Source: a virus. From it: a stretch of 39,227 nucleotides of DNA. The position numbers and the translations under genes were made by a program. The notes below the pieces were generated by a model. The model was not told the DNA's origin, searched no databases, and saw only the letters and a list, made by a program, of their open reading frames with translations. Positions 5,751-39,227 of this stretch are shown here, one piece after another. The stretch's first letter is position 1. Every line of letters starts with the position of its first letter. The stretch covers positions 1 through 39,227 of IMG/VR virus record IMGVR_UViG_3300008450_000124. One strand, written 5' to 3'.

Positions 5751-6466
5751 CCATCACCATCAACTTGGACTTCGCGTCCATTGTCAGCGAAGCCGTCCAA
5801 CCGGAGCGCATCAAGCCCCTGGTGGAGAACGCCATCCGCGACGCCATCAATGCCGCGATCCAGCATGCGACCTCCTACAAGAGCCGATTCCAGGAGGAAT
5901 TGATCGCACAGTTGTCCGAGGCCCTGCCGCATGGGTTGGCCATCGACGACATGTCCAAGTTCCAACATGTCCTTAACGCTGCAATAAATGAAGCCGTCCA
6001 CGGCCAAAATGCCAAGACCGTGCAGACCGCACTGGCGGTCGCCGCCAAGAAAGTCATGCCGGACGTTCCCACCCGCATCAAACTGTCGGAGCTGATCGCG
6101 GCAGCCCGCGCAGGATTGCACGTGAACGAAGGCGAAGAGTTCTATGCAGAACTGGAAATGAACGAATATGGCGGCCGTTTATTCCTCGACGATGACGCCT
6201 GCAAACGTGAACGCAAATGGGGATCCGACATCATTCTGGCCTTTACCAAGGAAGGCGAGGTCTTTTCCCTACGCCTAGATGGCCGGGACATCACTAGCGC
6301 TGGCGACCTTTTCCTGGGTGATGCCGATCCGAAAAGCATTCCGGATGCCTGCGGCCGATTCGATGGCTTGCTGTTGTCCATGTACGTGGGCCGTACCTCG
6401 ATCGAGATCGATGGCGATGCCGACGATGTGGAAACATGGGCAGAACCGAAGGACGGTGAACCATGA
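5747..6466 (+). CDS. Hypothetical protein, 239 residues, with an antisense copy of a head gene segment
   Basis: Not recognised. Residues 1-110 are helical (SIVSEAVQPERIKPLVENAI), and residues ~120-239 are acidic and strand-rich (EFYAELEMNEYGGRLFLDDD, IEIDGDADDVETW). AAAGGG before the ATG provides a ribosome binding site. Residues 184-194 are encoded by 33 bases (6296-6328) that are an exact reverse complement of part of the decoration protein gene at 18629-18661, so this mRNA could pair with the late mRNA. Its stop overlaps the next ATG. Confidence 0.7.
   Translation: MTITINLDFASIVSEAVQPERIKPLVENAIRDAINAAIQHATSYKSRFQEELIAQLSEALPHGLAIDDMSKFQHVLNAAINEAVHGQNAKTVQTALAVAAKKVMPDVPTRIKLSELIAAARAGLHVNEGEEFYAELEMNEYGGRLFLDDDACKRERKWGSDIILAFTKEGEVFSLRLDGRDITSAGDLFLGDADPKSIPDACGRFDGLLLSMYVGRTSIEIDGDADDVETWAEPKDGEP
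6296..6328 (+). repeat. 33-base exact inverted copy of 18629-18661
   Basis: AGCGCTGGCGACCTTTTCCT starts a 33-base block whose reverse complement occurs exactly at 18629-18661 in the decoration gene. Beyond it, three mismatches are followed by six more matching bases (GACATC) in the same register. Both genes are on the + strand, so their transcripts are complementary here. Confidence 0.9.
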
Positions 6467-7332
6467 AAAACAGTCGCATCGAATGGACCGATCACACGTT
6501 CAACCCCTGGATCGGCTGCACCAAGGTTTCTCCGGGGTGTGACCACTGCTATGCGGAACGGCTGATGGATCACCGCATGCATAAGGTGTCGTGGAATGGC
6601 GCCCGCGTGCGCACGTCGTCCTCCTACTGGCGGCAGCCGTTGCGCTGGGACAAGGACGCCGCTGCGTCCGGAACCCGCCCTCGCGTCTTCTGCGCCTCGC
6701 TGGCCGATATCTTCGACGGACACCCCTCCATCACCAGCGGATGGGTCGGAGATCTCTGGCATCTGATCCACAGCACCCCGCATCTGGACTGGCTGCTGCT
6801 GACCAAGCGCCCGCAGAACATCGCCCATATGCTCCCAGAATCCTACGGCATGCCGGCGTGGGGCTATGGATGGGACAACGTCTGGCTAGGTACCTCGATC
6901 GAAAATCAGGGAACGGCAAACCTGCGCTCCGTTGAACTGCGCATAATACCAGCCCGCCATAGGTTTATCAGTTGCGAACCCTTACTGGGTCCGGTGGAGA
7001 TCCATCTTGACGGAAGGCTCCACTGGGTCATCGCCGGTGGTGAATCCGGACCGCAGGCCCGCCCGCTGCATCCAGACTGGGCGCGATCACTGCGCGATCA
7101 GTGTGTGTACTCCGGAACCCCTTTCTTCTTCAAGCAATGGGGAGAATGGGCTCCCTGGGATGACGACAACTGGTCGCTGCCCGCAGGAGCCGATGACGTG
7201 ATCGCCCACGATCACGCCATCACCCTGGACGGCGTCGAGTTTCTACGGGTCGGTAAAAAGCGTGCCGGCCGCTGCCTGGATGGTCTCACCTGGTCGCAAC
7301 TGCCCGCAGAGATGCGAAAGTCCACCCCATGA
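6463..7332 (+). CDS. DUF5131 (phage Gp37/Gp68) family protein
   Basis: The N-terminus IEWTDHTFNPWIGCTKVSPG and the cysteines Cys19, Cys26 and Cys29 (CDHCYAE) identify the Gp37/Gp68 family (DUF5131), widespread in phages. The cysteine spacing suggests an iron-sulfur or radical-SAM-like centre. Further family marks are LLLTKRPQNI, WLGTSIENQ, RFISCEPLLG and WVIAGGESG, followed by FFFKQWGEW near the C-terminus. At 289 residues it is about full length. The biochemical role of the family is not settled. ATG 6463 overlaps the previous stop and follows a GGTGAACC spacer. Confidence 0.9.
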   Translation: MKNSRIEWTDHTFNPWIGCTKVSPGCDHCYAERLMDHRMHKVSWNGARVRTSSSYWRQPLRWDKDAAASGTRPRVFCASLADIFDGHPSITSGWVGDLWHLIHSTPHLDWLLLTKRPQNIAHMLPESYGMPAWGYGWDNVWLGTSIENQGTANLRSVELRIIPARHRFISCEPLLGPVEIHLDGRLHWVIAGGESGPQARPLHPDWARSLRDQCVYSGTPFFFKQWGEWAPWDDDNWSLPAGADDVIAHDHAITLDGVEFLRVGKKRAGRCLDGLTWSQLPAEMRKSTP

Positions 7333-27461: not shown

Positions 27462-28559
27462 ATGAGCACCGAAGCCAAGATCGTCTTTTCCGGCAACAGC
27501 ACCGGCGCCGAAGCAGCGGCAACCAAGGCTGCCGCCGGACTGAAAAAGATTGAGACCGCTGCCCGGTCTGCGGGTGCGGCTGCCGATAACCTCGGGGCCA
27601 AGATCCAGAAGATCAAAGGCCCCACCGCGGCCGAAGGAGCCCTACGTGCCATCAGCCGTGGCGGTGGCGTGGTCGGCAGCACCGCCGGCCGGGTCGCCGA
27701 AAGCATCCAGGCCGGCGGCAAGTTCGGCGGTGGGATCATGGCCCTGGGTCTGGCCGCCACCGCTGCCAGCCTGGCCCTGCACGCCCTGGTCGCGGCCAGC
27801 GACCGGGCCGCGGAACAGGCAGGACGGGTTGCGGAGGGTATGCTCACCCTGGACCGGGCGCGCAAGTCAGCGGTGGGCGCAGCGGATCAAGCCGCCCTGG
27901 AGAAGACCGAGATTCTGCGCGGACTGCTCGGGATCGGCGGTCAAGGCGCGGTGGATATGGCCACCAGCCTGGAAAAGCAAGGAGTCCTCGGAGCGTCCGA
28001 AGGTCTGACCACGCTGTATCGCGCCAACATGGCCAGCCCTGCCGCGATCAACGCCGCCCGCCGGGCCAGCCAGACTGGACAGATGGGCTTTGAGACGGCG
28101 GCCGGGATCATCACGCAAGGCACGTCCCTGACGGGTTCCGTGGATGAAGACGCCATGCGCATCCTGCGTAATGGCAACATCGCCACCCAACACCGCAGCA
28201 TATCCCAGATGGTGAGTGCTGCCGCAGGCGCATCAGGAGTACTCGATCGCATCCGGACCGGCCAAGGCGAAACCACAGCAGCGGCCTTGGTCCGGGGGCA
28301 GAATCAGAACTTGCCCTATAGTGATCCATTGCGCGATGCCTATGCCACTGTGGCGCATCCGGAACTGGTGGCGCGGCAAAAGGTCAATGAAGCCTTGGAA
28401 GAACAAGAACGAGTCCTGCGCGCCCAGACCGATGCGGCTTGGCTGTTCGTGGAGGTTCTCAAGGAAATGGGGTCCTGGGTAGGCATGTCTGATGGATCAA
28501 AGACCATGCAGCTCAAACGGCACGTCGAGGTCCGTCGTCAGGTTGTTGGTGGAGGATAA
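27462..28559 (+). CDS. Tape measure protein, short
   Basis: A 365-residue protein directly after the chaperone gene. The N-terminus (GAEAAATKAAAGLKKIETAA and following) is the Ala-rich helical start typical of tape measure proteins. A hydrophobic stretch (FGGGIMALGLAATAASLALH, ~90-110) could enter the host membrane during DNA delivery. Residues ~151-265 (LRGLLGIGGQGAVD ... DEDAMRILRNGN ... QMVSAAAGA) form a domain also found in the membrane-anchored gene at 35718-36395. The short length predicts a short tail, tens of nanometres. The role of length in tail measurement is established; the estimate is inference. Confidence 0.8.
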   Translation: MSTEAKIVFSGNSTGAEAAATKAAAGLKKIETAARSAGAAADNLGAKIQKIKGPTAAEGALRAISRGGGVVGSTAGRVAESIQAGGKFGGGIMALGLAATAASLALHALVAASDRAAEQAGRVAEGMLTLDRARKSAVGAADQAALEKTEILRGLLGIGGQGAVDMATSLEKQGVLGASEGLTTLYRANMASPAAINAARRASQTGQMGFETAAGIITQGTSLTGSVDEDAMRILRNGNIATQHRSISQMVSAAAGASGVLDRIRTGQGETTAAALVRGQNQNLPYSDPLRDAYATVAHPELVARQKVNEALEEQERVLRAQTDAAWLFVEVLKEMGSWVGMSDGSKTMQLKRHVEVRRQVVGGG

Positions 28560-34154: not shown

Positions 34155-34354
34155 TAACTCCCGATCCAGTACCCCCGACCTACCTGCGCGACCTATGCGT
34201 GCAGGTAGGGGGTCAGCGGCAGGCAGCACGGATGCTGCATGTCGATGAGCGCACTGTGCGTAAATGGGTCGCAAAAGAGCGTACCTGTTCCTGGGCCGCG
34301 GCCGAACTTCTCAGACGCCTAGCAGCCGAAACTCACCCCGCCCCCACCCACTGA
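34148..34354 (+). CDS. Small helix-turn-helix regulator (YdaS/Cro-like)
   Basis: A 68-residue protein with YLRDLCVQVGGQRQAARMLH followed by VDERTVRKWVAKE and AAELLRRLAAETH. This is the GGQ..AA..L.v..rTVrkW pattern of small phage helix-turn-helix proteins. It is the last gene of the right-hand + strand operon and runs convergently into the integrase, overlapping its 3' end by 44 bases. Could control the palindromic promoter at 33139-33165 or the integrase. Confidence 0.7.
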   Translation: MLVTPDPVPPTYLRDLCVQVGGQRQAARMLHVDERTVRKWVAKERTCSWAAAELLRRLAAETHPAPTH

Positions 34355-35423
34355 CCGCATGCCGGTGCAGCACGGTCTCCCGTGCATACCGCCCAGTGGT
34401 ATCCGCCACCCGATGCCCGGCCGCCATCTGTACGGAGATCGACGGTTCACCCGTGGCCAGCATCCACGCGATCCAGGTGTGCCGCAGGCAATGATAGGTC
34501 CGGCCGCGCGGCTCGATCTGGCACAACCGCAGATGCTCAGCGAACAACCGCTGCCGCTGCCGGCAGATCATGCCTGCCACCGCAGGCACCACTTGGCCGA
34601 TTGCCTGCCGGCGTGGCTCCAGGAGACCCGCCAGTTCGGCCTGATACGGAACGATCCGCTCCCAACTGCGCTTGAGCCGCCAGGTCTCGCCCGCATCCCG
34701 GCGGATCAGAATCCGCTGCGCCGGCTGATCCAAGCGTGTCCAGGTCAGGTTCGCCGCCTCATCCGATCGCAGGCCAGCATACAGCCCGATGGCCACCCAG
34801 AGGCCATAGTCTGAAGCGGTGGCCGCTACCACCAGGCGCCGGCCTTCCTCCACGCTGAAAGTCTCCCGCAGACCCTCGACCGGCACGGCGACGGTCACCC
34901 CGCGCAGGGGGTCTACCACGCCTTCGGCCCCTGGCTGGCGCAGCGCCCAGTGGACGCACGATCGCAACGTCCGCAGGTGCTGGGCACGGGTGGAGGCGCT
35001 GATCTGTTCTAGGGTGCCCTTGCGCACCGGTCGCAGGCCATCCAGCCACGCCCGGGTCATCGCCGCGAAGCCTGCCGCCTGCCGCAGATCCGAGCACCCG
35101 GCCGCGATCGCGGACCGCACCTGTCGCTCCGCCTCGGCCCGATAGGACTCCACCCGGCCCTGCCGCCGCAGATCCTCAGCCCAGGGACCGATCAATCGAT
35201 CAAGCAGCAACAGCGTCTCTGGCTGCCCCGCCGTCGCCACCTGAGCCGCCCGCTGGATGGCCCACGCCTTGGCATCATGAGCCTCGCCGAAGCTCCGCTT
35301 TTCATACCCGCCGGCCGCCCGGACCCAAGCCTGATACCGCTGCGGTGTCTTCGGCCTGACCCCATCCCGCACCGCCTTTTCCTTCCACCGATCCACGATC
35401 CGCCACCCGACATGCCGCCCCAT
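34311..35423 (-). CDS. int: Tyrosine recombinase integrase
   Basis: Site-specific recombinase for insertion into tRNA-Leu. Start ATG 35423 is chosen for the AAAGGA nearby upstream; the longer frame to 35519 has an unlikely Trp/Cys-rich start. The N-terminal part is an arm-binding type (KTPQRYQAWVRAAGG, AKAWAIQRAAQ), then a core-binding helical domain. The catalytic domain shows the Arg in GLYAGLRSDEAANLTW, His311-x2-Arg314 (HCLRHTW), His337 (AAGHRVADTTG) and the nucleophile Tyr346 (GRYARE). Length 370 residues is normal. It reads away from the attachment site, which lies 159 bases upstream of its start. Confidence 0.95.
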   Translation of the reverse strand: MGRHVGWRIVDRWKEKAVRDGVRPKTPQRYQAWVRAAGGYEKRSFGEAHDAKAWAIQRAAQVATAGQPETLLLLDRLIGPWAEDLRRQGRVESYRAEAERQVRSAIAAGCSDLRQAAGFAAMTRAWLDGLRPVRKGTLEQISASTRAQHLRTLRSCVHWALRQPGAEGVVDPLRGVTVAVPVEGLRETFSVEEGRRLVVAATASDYGLWVAIGLYAGLRSDEAANLTWTRLDQPAQRILIRRDAGETWRLKRSWERIVPYQAELAGLLEPRRQAIGQVVPAVAGMICRQRQRLFAEHLRLCQIEPRGRTYHCLRHTWIAWMLATGEPSISVQMAAGHRVADTTGRYARETVLHRHAVSGWGRGEFRLLGV

Positions 35424-35581
35424 GGGGTAGTTTCCTTTCTGGGGGCACTTTCGGAGATACTTTCCCGTGCACAACCAGGAACACCAGGATACACCCGTCC
35501 AGCCAGCCAGGACGAACACCGGTAGATCTGATCATCACAACATTGCAGGAAAAATGCACTTTTTACAATGCTTTTGAGCCA

Positions 35582-35633
35582 TAGCCGGGGCGGGAGTCGA
35601 ACCCGCACGATCTTGCGATCACTGGATTTTGAG
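35582..35633 (-). other. 3' half of tRNA-Leu(CAA): attachment site core
   Basis: On the minus strand: anticodon loop CTCAAAA (anticodon CAA), the 3' anticodon stem TCCAG, a long variable arm with GATC-GCAA-GATC, the T arm GCGGG-TTCGACT-CCCGC, the 3' acceptor strand CCCGGCT and discriminator A at 35582. The 5' half is missing: bases upstream (CTGTT) only partly match the needed CTGGA. This is how phages that integrate into tRNA genes restore the tRNA. Its 3' end points at the integrase gene. Confidence 0.85.
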
Positions 35634-35717
35634 AACAGAGACAAGACGAGCAATAATAATGGTTTATGACGTTTGGAGGCAATTTTGGAGAGTGTTTTAT
35701 ATTAAATTGACGTAGAA

Positions 35718-36395
35718 TTATTGAGAAAGGTATTCAATAATATCTGCAATATCACTTCCGTTTTTAATCAAAATAAGTTCCAAAGATCGATTCGCACCTG
35801 CCGCATCATTAATCATCTGCGCGATTGTACGATTTTGACCAGCATAATCATTACCCCTAAGAATTTTCATTGCGTCATCATCAATATTACCAGAAAAACC
35901 GCACAGAGGAAGTATACGAACTGCCTGCATCATAGTAACAATCCCAGTCTTGACCGCACGAGCCACCGCATCTCGGTGCATTTTCTTGGCAGTATCTTGT
36001 TGATACATAATAGTTAGTCCATCCAAGGCATCCATAACACCGTCCCGATACCAGGATACAGCTTGATCAACTGCTGGTTGACCACCTATTCCACGTAATT
36101 TTCTCAAAGCATCAGCGAAGATCTTTCGATCATTAGGACTCATAAGGCGCACGAGTTGTTCGCCATTGCTGAGAACGCGGCCTGGGATGTAATTTGGTGA
36201 ACTTACCGGCACGGTTTTCACGGAAACAGAAGATTCCGGCACGGTTTTTATGGAAACAGGCAACGATGGAGCAGTGGGTTGCCTACGATACTTGAAAAAA
36301 AGCAAAAAACCAACGACACCGACAGAGAGTAAAATGATAGACGTAAAAACTGCAAAAGAATACAATGATGTGTGTTTTTTGATACTTCGTATCAT
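35718..36395 (-). CDS. Membrane-anchored protein homologous to the phage tape measure protein (superinfection exclusion candidate)
   Basis: 225 residues from ATG 36395, which has AAGGA five bases upstream; an ATG two codons earlier (36401) is the alternative. A basic start is followed by one transmembrane helix (SFAVFTSIILLSVGVVGFLL, ~13-32) and a linker with a tandem repeat (IKTVPESS/VKTVPVSS). Residues ~95-208 align with tape measure residues ~151-265 with about 45 identities by eye (GIGGQ-x-AVD, DDDAM-x-ILR, QMI...AAGA). The DNA is strongly AT-rich compared with the rest. It has its own promoter-like boxes and lies next to the attachment site, so it would be at the prophage edge. Expression in the lysogen and blocking of related phage entry are inferred. 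Confidence 0.75.
   Translation of the reverse strand: MIRSIKKHTSLYSFAVFTSIILLSVGVVGFLLFFKYRRQPTAPSLPVSIKTVPESSVSVKTVPVSSPNYIPGRVLSNGEQLVRLMSPNDRKIFADALRKLRGIGGQPAVDQAVSWYRDGVMDALDGLTIMYQQDTAKKMHRDAVARAVKTGIVTMMQAVRILPLCGFSGNIDDDAMKILRGNDYAGQNRTIAQMINDAAGANRSLELILIKNGSDIADIIEYLSQ
36206..36259 (-). repeat. Tandem 30-base repeat in the linker of the membrane-anchored gene
   Basis: 24-base units beginning CCGGCACGGTTTT at 36206 and 36236 (30-base period) differ at two positions. They encode the repeated KTVP segments between membrane helix and soluble domain. Confidence 0.7.
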
Positions 36396-36422
36396 GTTCA
36401 TCCTTTTTCATCTAAGGAGGGA

Positions 36423-36451
36423 ATGGTAAACGTCAATCATGGTGGTATCAA
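36423..36451 (-). promoter_or_regulatory. Promoter-like boxes for the membrane-anchored gene
   Basis: On the minus strand TTGATA (36446-36451) and TACCAT (36423-36428) are separated by 17 bases, placing a transcription start close before the ATG at 36395/36401. This would allow expression independent of the repressor gene just upstream. Confidence 0.45.
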
Positions 36452-36458
36452 GGAGCAT

Positions 36459-36950
36459 TTATGCCCGCTCGTTCTTCCCGCCCCGCTTCCGTGCTGCCCT
36501 TGGTCGATCTGGTCCAGGAGATGCGGCATCGAGTTCAGCAGCATAGGCGCTGGCTTCGTCGCCTGACCAGGCGTCTGGAGGAAGAGCGTCGGCGACGCGA
36601 CGACCTTGGACAGGGGGAAGGACGGCGTTCGCCATAAGTTCCGCCGTTTCCTGCTCTTTTTGTATCGCGAGCGTGTCACGATACAGGCCGATCAAGGCAT
36701 GGCAGAGGGCCTGGATATCTTCCGGAGCCTTGGCACTGAGAGCGAGCATCCACATCTCGGCCCGGTCTTCGGGCTTGAGCCGGAGACGCTCCGCCCATTG
36801 GTCGAGTTGCTTGGGCGGGGGAGGGTATTTTCCAGACATCGCGGCATGAAGAGTGCCATGGTTGGTCCCTAGTATTTTGGCTATTTCTCGCAATGAAAGA
36901 TTGCGAATAAGCGGCAATTCTCGCAAAAAACTACTGAAAGATTGATGCAT
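36459..36950 (-). CDS. CI-like repressor, helix-turn-helix, no protease domain
   Basis: 163 residues from ATG 36950 (the frame runs further upstream but without support). The N-terminal XRE-like domain: FLRELPLIRNLSLREIAKIL, GTNHGTLHAAMSG, then PPPPKQLDQWAERLRL. The middle is helical (DIQALCHALIGLYRDTLAIQ), probably for dimerisation, and the tail is disordered and basic. No Ala-Gly cleavage site or S24 peptidase is visible, so induction must differ from lambda CI. It faces the early operon across 123 bases with operator-like repeats. Confidence 0.7.
   Translation of the reverse strand: MHQSFSSFLRELPLIRNLSLREIAKILGTNHGTLHAAMSGKYPPPPKQLDQWAERLRLKPEDRAEMWMLALSAKAPEDIQALCHALIGLYRDTLAIQKEQETAELMANAVLPPVQGRRVADALPPDAWSGDEASAYAAELDAASPGPDRPRAARKRGGKNERA
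36461..36637 (+). CDS. Possible small basic protein antisense to the repressor 3' end
   Basis: ATG 36461 has a near-perfect ribosome binding site, AAGGAG at 36450-36455, five bases upstream. The 58-codon frame encodes a very basic helical peptide (MPARSSRPASVLPLVDLVQE, then RHRVQQHRRWLRRLTRRLEE). It lies wholly opposite the C-terminal part of the repressor gene. The reading frame may be a by-product of repressor codons, so this is tentative. Confidence 0.25.
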   Translation: MPARSSRPASVLPLVDLVQEMRHRVQQHRRWLRRLTRRLEEERRRRDDLGQGEGRRSP

Positions 36951-36997: not shown

Positions 36998-37052
36998 TTG
37001 CTGTCAAGGTTTCCTTTCCATAGGCTTTTGTCGCTGTCAAGGAATCCTTGAC
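36998..37052. promoter_or_regulatory. Operator region between repressor and early operon
   Basis: GCTGTCAAGG occurs at 37000-37009 and 37033-37042, 33 bases (about three helical turns) apart. The second is part of the perfect palindrome GTCAAGGAATCCTTGAC (37036-37052). TTGCTG (36998-37003) and TAGGCT (37021-37026), 17 bases apart, are weak boxes for rightward transcription. Binding of the repressor here would shut off the early operon. AAGGAAAGG before 37074 is the ribosome binding site. Confidence 0.6.
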
Positions 37053-39034: not shown

Positions 39035-39227
39035 TCCGAACCTCCGCATTTGCCCGTAGACGCATCCTCCCCCCACCCCCACCTTCCGGAGGTTTCGACC
39101 GCCGATCGTGCGCCTACGCGCCCGCACGCCCCACCAGCGTTGTGCCAGGACAAGGGGCCCCACCCCCCCCGGCGACGGGTCCTTCCCCCGGGGGGCCAGC
39201 CAACAGCCCGGGGCAAAGCCCCTCCGA
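39031..39227 (+). other. GC-rich window end; possible partial reading frame
   Basis: A frame opens at ATG 39031 (ATGA overlap) and runs off the end with Pro/Gly/Ser-rich, low-complexity codons (RRRILPPPPPSGGFDRR...). If the ends of the window are joined, it would stop at TAG (bases 7-9). The DNA has runs of C and G, and GGGGC-AAA-GCCCC is a short stem near the end. It could be a tail of a gene, a regulatory or packaging-site region, or noncoding. Nothing firmer can be said. Confidence 0.3.

What the first reader, a model, noticed from the sequence alone, without database searches (positions are those of the whole stretch)
35718..36395. Membrane-anchored homologue of the phage's own tape measure protein at the prophage edge
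The protein has one N-terminal transmembrane helix, a repeat linker and a soluble domain that aligns with tape measure residues ~151-265 (GIGGQ, DDDAM/DEDAM, ILR, AAGA; about 45 identities in ~115 aligned positions by hand). The gene is AT-rich, runs on the minus strand, has its own promoter-like boxes and lies next to the attachment site, where lysogenic conversion genes often sit. Known exclusion proteins such as HK97 gp15 are membrane proteins that act against the tape measure/entry step, but they are not described as copies of the tape measure domain. A decoy that blocks entry of related phages is the inference.
Basis: partly seen in the sequence, partly recalled or inferred. Interest (0 to 1): 0.85.

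Follow-up and report, generated by a model that had tools for sequence, protein, structure and literature searches.

The report
Membrane-anchored copy of phage tail domain
A temperate phage of unknown host carries, beside its repressor and integration genes, a small membrane-anchored protein whose soluble part is a clear relative of a domain in the phage's own presumed tape measure protein, and it may let a lysogenic cell jam DNA entry by related phages.

Summary
The gene at 35718-36395 (-) encodes 225 aa: one N-terminal hydrophobic helix, a linker holding a 30-nt repeat, and a domain 41% identical over 122 residues to residues 152-273 of the presumed tape measure protein (27462-28559 +; E = 3e-23; score 205 against a maximum of 58 in 1000 shuffles). 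The likeness is at protein level; third codon positions are nearly randomised. The gene has the lowest G+C of the window's genes. It lies 63 nt downstream of a repressor-like gene on the same strand, with a tRNA-Leu fragment (presumed attP core) and the integrase beyond. Tuc2009 (Sie2009) and TP-J34 (Ltp) carry exclusion genes in the same order, int(-)/sie(-)/repressor(-)/cro(+). Sie2009, Ltp and HK97 gp15 show no likeness to their own tape measures; this protein does. Exclusion of related phages at DNA entry by mimicking a tape measure domain is the best reading, but it is inferred: no relative was found in the collections searched, the host is unknown, structure models are poor, and the tape measure is assigned by position and composition. 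I file it as a new variant of membrane-anchored prophage exclusion proteins.

The parts
35718..36395 (-). Gene X: 225-aa membrane-anchored protein; helix about residues 12-34, linker about 37-93, tape-measure-like domain about 97-217
36199..36258 (-). two tandem 30-nt copies in the linker (VSIKTVPESS / VSVKTVPVSS)
27462..28559 (+). presumed tape measure protein, 365 aa; hydrophobic stretch 88-113, shared domain 152-273
   Evidence: helical throughout in a low-confidence model; lies between tail-tube-like and hub-like genes
27915..28280 (+). segment of the presumed tape measure gene that encodes the shared domain
35584..35632 (-). 3' part of a tRNA-Leu (CAA anticodon loop, variable arm, T arm); presumed attP core
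   Evidence: sequence reading; variable-arm and T-arm stems fold; host site not found
34311..35519 (-). tyrosine integrase
   Evidence: PF00589 E = 1.8e-10, phrog_1 E = 4.6e-26
36459..36950 (-). HTH repressor-like protein, 63 nt upstream of X on the same strand
   Evidence: phrog_2328 E = 1.7e-4, HTH_31 E = 2.6e-5, below the curated cut-off; start
36423..36451 (-). weak promoter-like boxes upstream of X
   Evidence: 9 of 12 consensus positions
37000..37049 (.). pair of 17-nt repeats (GCTGTCAAGGnnTCCTT) on the divergent side of the repressor gene; presumed operators

Best explanation
X is a prophage exclusion protein expressed with, or next to, the repressor in the lysogen. It sits in the cytoplasmic membrane and displays a relative of a helical tape measure domain. 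When a related phage injects, its tape measure enters the envelope and needs that domain, either to bind a host membrane partner or to bind its sister subunits; X already occupies that partner or joins the subunits, and DNA passage stalls. Shown: the homology, the hydrophobic anchor, the gene position. Inferred: that the partner is a tape measure, expression in lysogeny, display on the right side of the membrane, and the block at entry. Which of the two binding modes applies is open.
For: Domain homology far above chance. Conserved at protein level while third positions are near random (codon-position identity 52/60/25%; 19% expected by composition for third positions), so both copies have been kept as proteins. 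Same order of parts in both proteins: hydrophobic stretch, then linker, then domain. Same gene order and strand as int/Sie2009/repressor/cro in Tuc2009 and int/ltp/../CI/cro in TP-J34, and the Sie2009 layout of basic N-terminus, one helix and low-complexity linker. Known exclusion proteins act on the tape measure: Ltp (PMC3952083); HK97 gp15 is escaped by hybrids with another phage's tube and tape measure genes (PMC10883804). SNIPE, a membrane defence protein, associates with tape measure proteins, and some homologues carry a tail-needle-like region (PMC13190303).
Against: No relatives were found in the collections searched, so co-occurrence and conservation cannot be tested. The tape measure is assigned by position and composition only. 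Helix flanks do not decide the topology. The low G+C and saturated third positions show that X did not arise as a recent copy of this phage's own gene. No expression or phenotype data.
Confidence: 0.5

Rival explanations
1. X blocks virion assembly rather than entry: it binds newly made tape measure or its chaperone in a superinfected cell, as Tab and Tai do.
For: Tab acts on the tape measure during tail assembly (PMC10884400); Tai inhibits tail assembly (PMC11364771); the shared domain could join tape measure oligomers.
Against: The membrane anchor fits an envelope-stage block better; a temperate phage would also block its own assembly on induction unless X is shut off or countered.
Confidence: 0.15
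2. X is a lysogenic conversion protein of another kind. Its domain and the tape measure domain are related because both bind the same envelope component, and X alters the host envelope without excluding phages.
For: AT-rich gene beside the presumed att site, a usual place for conversion genes; nothing in the sequence by itself shows exclusion.
Against: Position and layout match exclusion genes; relation to a presumed DNA-entry protein of the same phage points to entry.
Confidence: 0.2
3. X is a remnant of another phage's tape measure gene, joined by recombination to a signal-anchor sequence and without function.
For: Foreign base composition; no relatives found.
Against: Intact frame with a well-spaced ribosome-binding site, conserved first and second codon positions, and a complete domain with an anchor and linker.
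Confidence: 0.1
4. X is a virion or late-stage accessory protein that works together with the tape measure.
For: Shared domain with a presumed tail protein.
Against: It lies in the lysogeny cassette on the opposite strand to the structural genes.
Confidence: 0.05

Closest known systems
Sie2009 of lactococcal phage Tuc2009
   Same: Gene order int(-)/sie(-)/repressor(-)/cro(+), 60-nt gap to the repressor (63 nt here); one N-terminal helix, Ser/Thr-rich linker, soluble domain
   Different: No sequence similarity to X; no similarity to its own tape measure
Ltp of Streptococcus thermophilus phage TP-J34
   Same: Lysogeny-module position; tethered outside the membrane; targets the tape measure (PMC3952083)
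   Different: Lipoprotein anchor; HTH repeat domains; no similarity to its own tape measure or to X
HK97 gp15
   Same: Small single-helix membrane protein that excludes at DNA entry; escape goes with tube and tape measure genes (PMC10883804)
   Different: 62 aa, encoded in the tail operon beside the tape measure; no clear similarity to the tape measure or to X
SNIPE
   Same: Membrane protein that associates with tape measure proteins; some homologues carry a region like the P22 tail needle (PMC13190303)
   Different: Nuclease and DUF4041 domains; no Pfam or PADLOC match for X
Tab and Tai tail-assembly blockers
   Same: Encoded by prophages or satellites; act on tail assembly, Tab through the tape measure (PMC10884400, PMC11364771)
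   Different: Act at assembly, not entry; no match of X to PADLOC models

Membership tests
Membrane-anchored prophage superinfection exclusion proteins (Sie2009 / Ltp / HK97 gp15 kind) | single N-terminal membrane anchor | tested here: met
   hydrophobic helix at about residues 12-34, comparable to Sie2009 and gp15; prediction only
Membrane-anchored prophage superinfection exclusion proteins (Sie2009 / Ltp / HK97 gp15 kind) | located in the lysogeny cassette between repressor and integrase (Sie2009, Ltp) | tested here: met
Membrane-anchored prophage superinfection exclusion proteins (Sie2009 / Ltp / HK97 gp15 kind) | expressed from the prophage | not testable with these tools
   only weak promoter-like boxes
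Membrane-anchored prophage superinfection exclusion proteins (Sie2009 / Ltp / HK97 gp15 kind) | blocks DNA entry of related phages | not testable with these tools
   no phenotype data
Sie2009, Ltp or gp15 sequence family | sequence similarity to one of these three proteins | tested here: not met
   scores inside the shuffle range
Homologue of a domain of the phage's own presumed tape measure | significant sequence similarity | tested here: met
   41% over 122 aa, E = 3e-23; 205 against a maximum of 58 in 1000 shuffles
Tape measure protein (identity of 27462-28559) | match to a known tape measure family or protein | tested here: inconclusive
   no Pfam match and no significant PHROG match; weak, compositional likeness to HK97 and TP-J34 tape measures; assignment rests on position, helical prediction and composition
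SNIPE | GIY-YIG nuclease and DUF4041 domains | tested here: not met
   no Pfam or PADLOC match

The most novel reading that the evidence does not exclude
A prophage anchors a copy of an entry-machine domain in the membrane as a dominant-negative decoy, so that any phage with a matching tape measure is stalled during DNA passage: exclusion by molecular mimicry of the invader's own part rather than by an unrelated binder.
Probability: 0.35. Interest if true: 0.8.

Novelty: new variant of a known kind. Interest (0 to 1): 0.6.

Why it matters
How small membrane proteins stop a tape measure from delivering DNA is not settled for most exclusion systems. A protein that carries a relative of the tape measure's own domain points to the interface concerned and predicts who is excluded: phages that share the domain. 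It also suggests a simple test in laboratory phages, anchoring pieces of their tape measure in the membrane. None of the three known exclusion proteins tested here, and none of the papers found, shows an exclusion protein homologous to its phage's tape measure; that literature search covered open-access papers only.

Tried and rejected
Relatives of X, of the presumed tape measure, of the hub-like protein, terminase, primase and major head protein were sought in viral contigs by peptide patterns; none was confirmed. tblastn in phages and plasmids gave nothing significant for X, and in phages nothing for the tape measure. Genome contigs gave nothing for the domain or for the tRNA-like core, so the host stays unknown. 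Kin could not be drawn for a virus record, and an E. coli locus could not serve as a centre. Structure models were poor (mean pLDDT 43 and 52), and fold searches with the X model gave no match at E <= 0.001. Similarity of the 365-aa protein to HK97 and TP-J34 tape measures is weak and looks mostly compositional. A host-derived gene at the record's edge was rejected because phage genes lie on both sides. Recent duplication was rejected because third codon positions are near random and base composition differs.

Full report
What was checked. The window is the whole of a virus record of 39,227 bases with no host name. The gene in question runs from 36395 to 35718 on the minus strand. It encodes an N-terminal basic stretch, one hydrophobic helix, a linker with two similar 30-nt units and a domain of about 120 residues.

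The homology is real. blastp of the protein against the 365-aa product of 27462-28559 gives 50 identities in 122 columns and E = 3e-23. A Smith-Waterman score of 205 compares with a maximum of 58 in 1000 shuffles, and the next best frame of the window scores 51. Codon positions 1, 2 and 3 are identical in 52, 60 and 25% of 123 aligned codons; 19% is expected for third positions from composition. So the likeness is old and held at protein level. GC3 is 0.34 in X and 0.71 in the matching part of the presumed tape measure gene. X is the outlier of the window, the mean GC3 of 38 genes being 0.75 and the next lowest 0.55. X is therefore not a recent copy of this phage's own gene; acquisition from a phage of different composition is likely (inference).

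Is the partner a tape measure? The 365-aa protein has no Pfam match above threshold and no significant PHROG match. It follows a short tail-tube-like protein and a 231-aa protein and precedes a long hub-like protein (these labels are my reading of the sequences and their order), is predicted as helices throughout in a low-confidence model, and has a hydrophobic stretch at residues 88-113. These are tape measure traits, but the assignment is an inference. A tape measure of this length would mean a short tail (own knowledge).

Surroundings. The order is integrase (34311-35519, minus), a tRNA-Leu 3' fragment (35584-35632; CAA loop, variable arm and T arm read from the sequence, stems folded), X (minus), an HTH repressor-like gene (36459-36950, minus), a pair of 17-nt repeats at 37000-37049, then rightward genes. 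Since phage genes lie on both sides of the fragment, the record shows the attP form, and X would lie at one end of the integrated prophage. The tRNA fragment was not found in genome contigs, so the host and the att site are unproven. The gap between the repressor gene and X is 63 nt, and the promoter-like boxes there are weak; co-transcription with the repressor is possible.

Comparison with known exclusion systems. In Tuc2009 the order is integrase, Sie2009, repressor on one strand and cro on the other, with 60 nt between Sie2009 and the repressor. TP-J34 has integrase, ltp, a metalloproteinase-motif gene and CI on one strand and cro on the other (PMC3952083). Sie2009 has the same layout of basic N-terminus, one helix, low-complexity linker and soluble domain. 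I compared Sie2009, Ltp and HK97 gp15 with their own tape measures: no score stands clear of the shuffles (249, 91 and 11 of 300 shuffles reach it), while X against its presumed tape measure lies far above them. X is not related in sequence to any of the three. Ltp binds the tape measure (PMC3952083); [quoted passage not shown] SNIPE associates with tape measure proteins at the membrane, and some SNIPE homologues carry a region like the P22 tail needle (PMC13190303). So membrane proteins that act on the tape measure are known, and borrowing an entry part has a near precedent, but a membrane-anchored relative of the phage's own tape measure domain was not found in the papers searched (open-access papers only).

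Mechanism. I favour exclusion at DNA entry by mimicry: X presents the domain in the membrane and either occupies a host partner needed by the incoming tape measure or joins its oligomer. In both proteins a hydrophobic stretch precedes the domain, so X may resemble a tape measure already in the membrane (inference). In the TP901-1 tape measure the first hydrophobic region is essential, though its role in membrane insertion was not shown (PMC5099701). The topology of X is undecided, as basic residues stand on both sides of the helix. Rivals are a block of tail assembly (as Tab, PMC10884400), a conversion function unrelated to exclusion, and a functionless remnant.

Limits. No relative of X, of its domain or of any of the phage's major proteins tested was confirmed in viral contigs or, for the domain, in genome contigs; tblastn against phages and plasmids gave nothing for X, and against phages nothing for the tape measure, while terminase has only distant phage relatives. 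The contig searches used short peptide or DNA patterns, so diverged relatives could have been missed. Structure models are too poor to use. The finding rests on one genome and has no functional evidence.

Noticed in passing
6463-7332 (+): Strong match to the PADLOC candidate-defence models PDC-M41B (E = 4.5e-58) and PDC-M30B; the sequence reads like the phage Gp37/Gp68 family (own knowledge).
   Followed up: no
37000-37049: Two 17-nt repeats GCTGTCAAGG(TT/AA)TCCTT, 33 nt apart start to start, beside the repressor gene start; look like operators.
   Followed up: no
whole record: The phage is isolated: the listed terminase hits in 50,697 phage records are about 21-26% identical and peptide-pattern scans found no kin in IMG/VR.
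   Followed up: partly
39058-39227 and 1-2865: Reading from the record's end into its start keeps the primase frame open, so the record may be a nearly complete circular or permuted genome cut near the primase start.
   Followed up: partly
35540-36450: An AT-rich island (local G+C down to 0.29) spans the presumed att core and X in a phage of about 0.65 G+C.
   Followed up: partly
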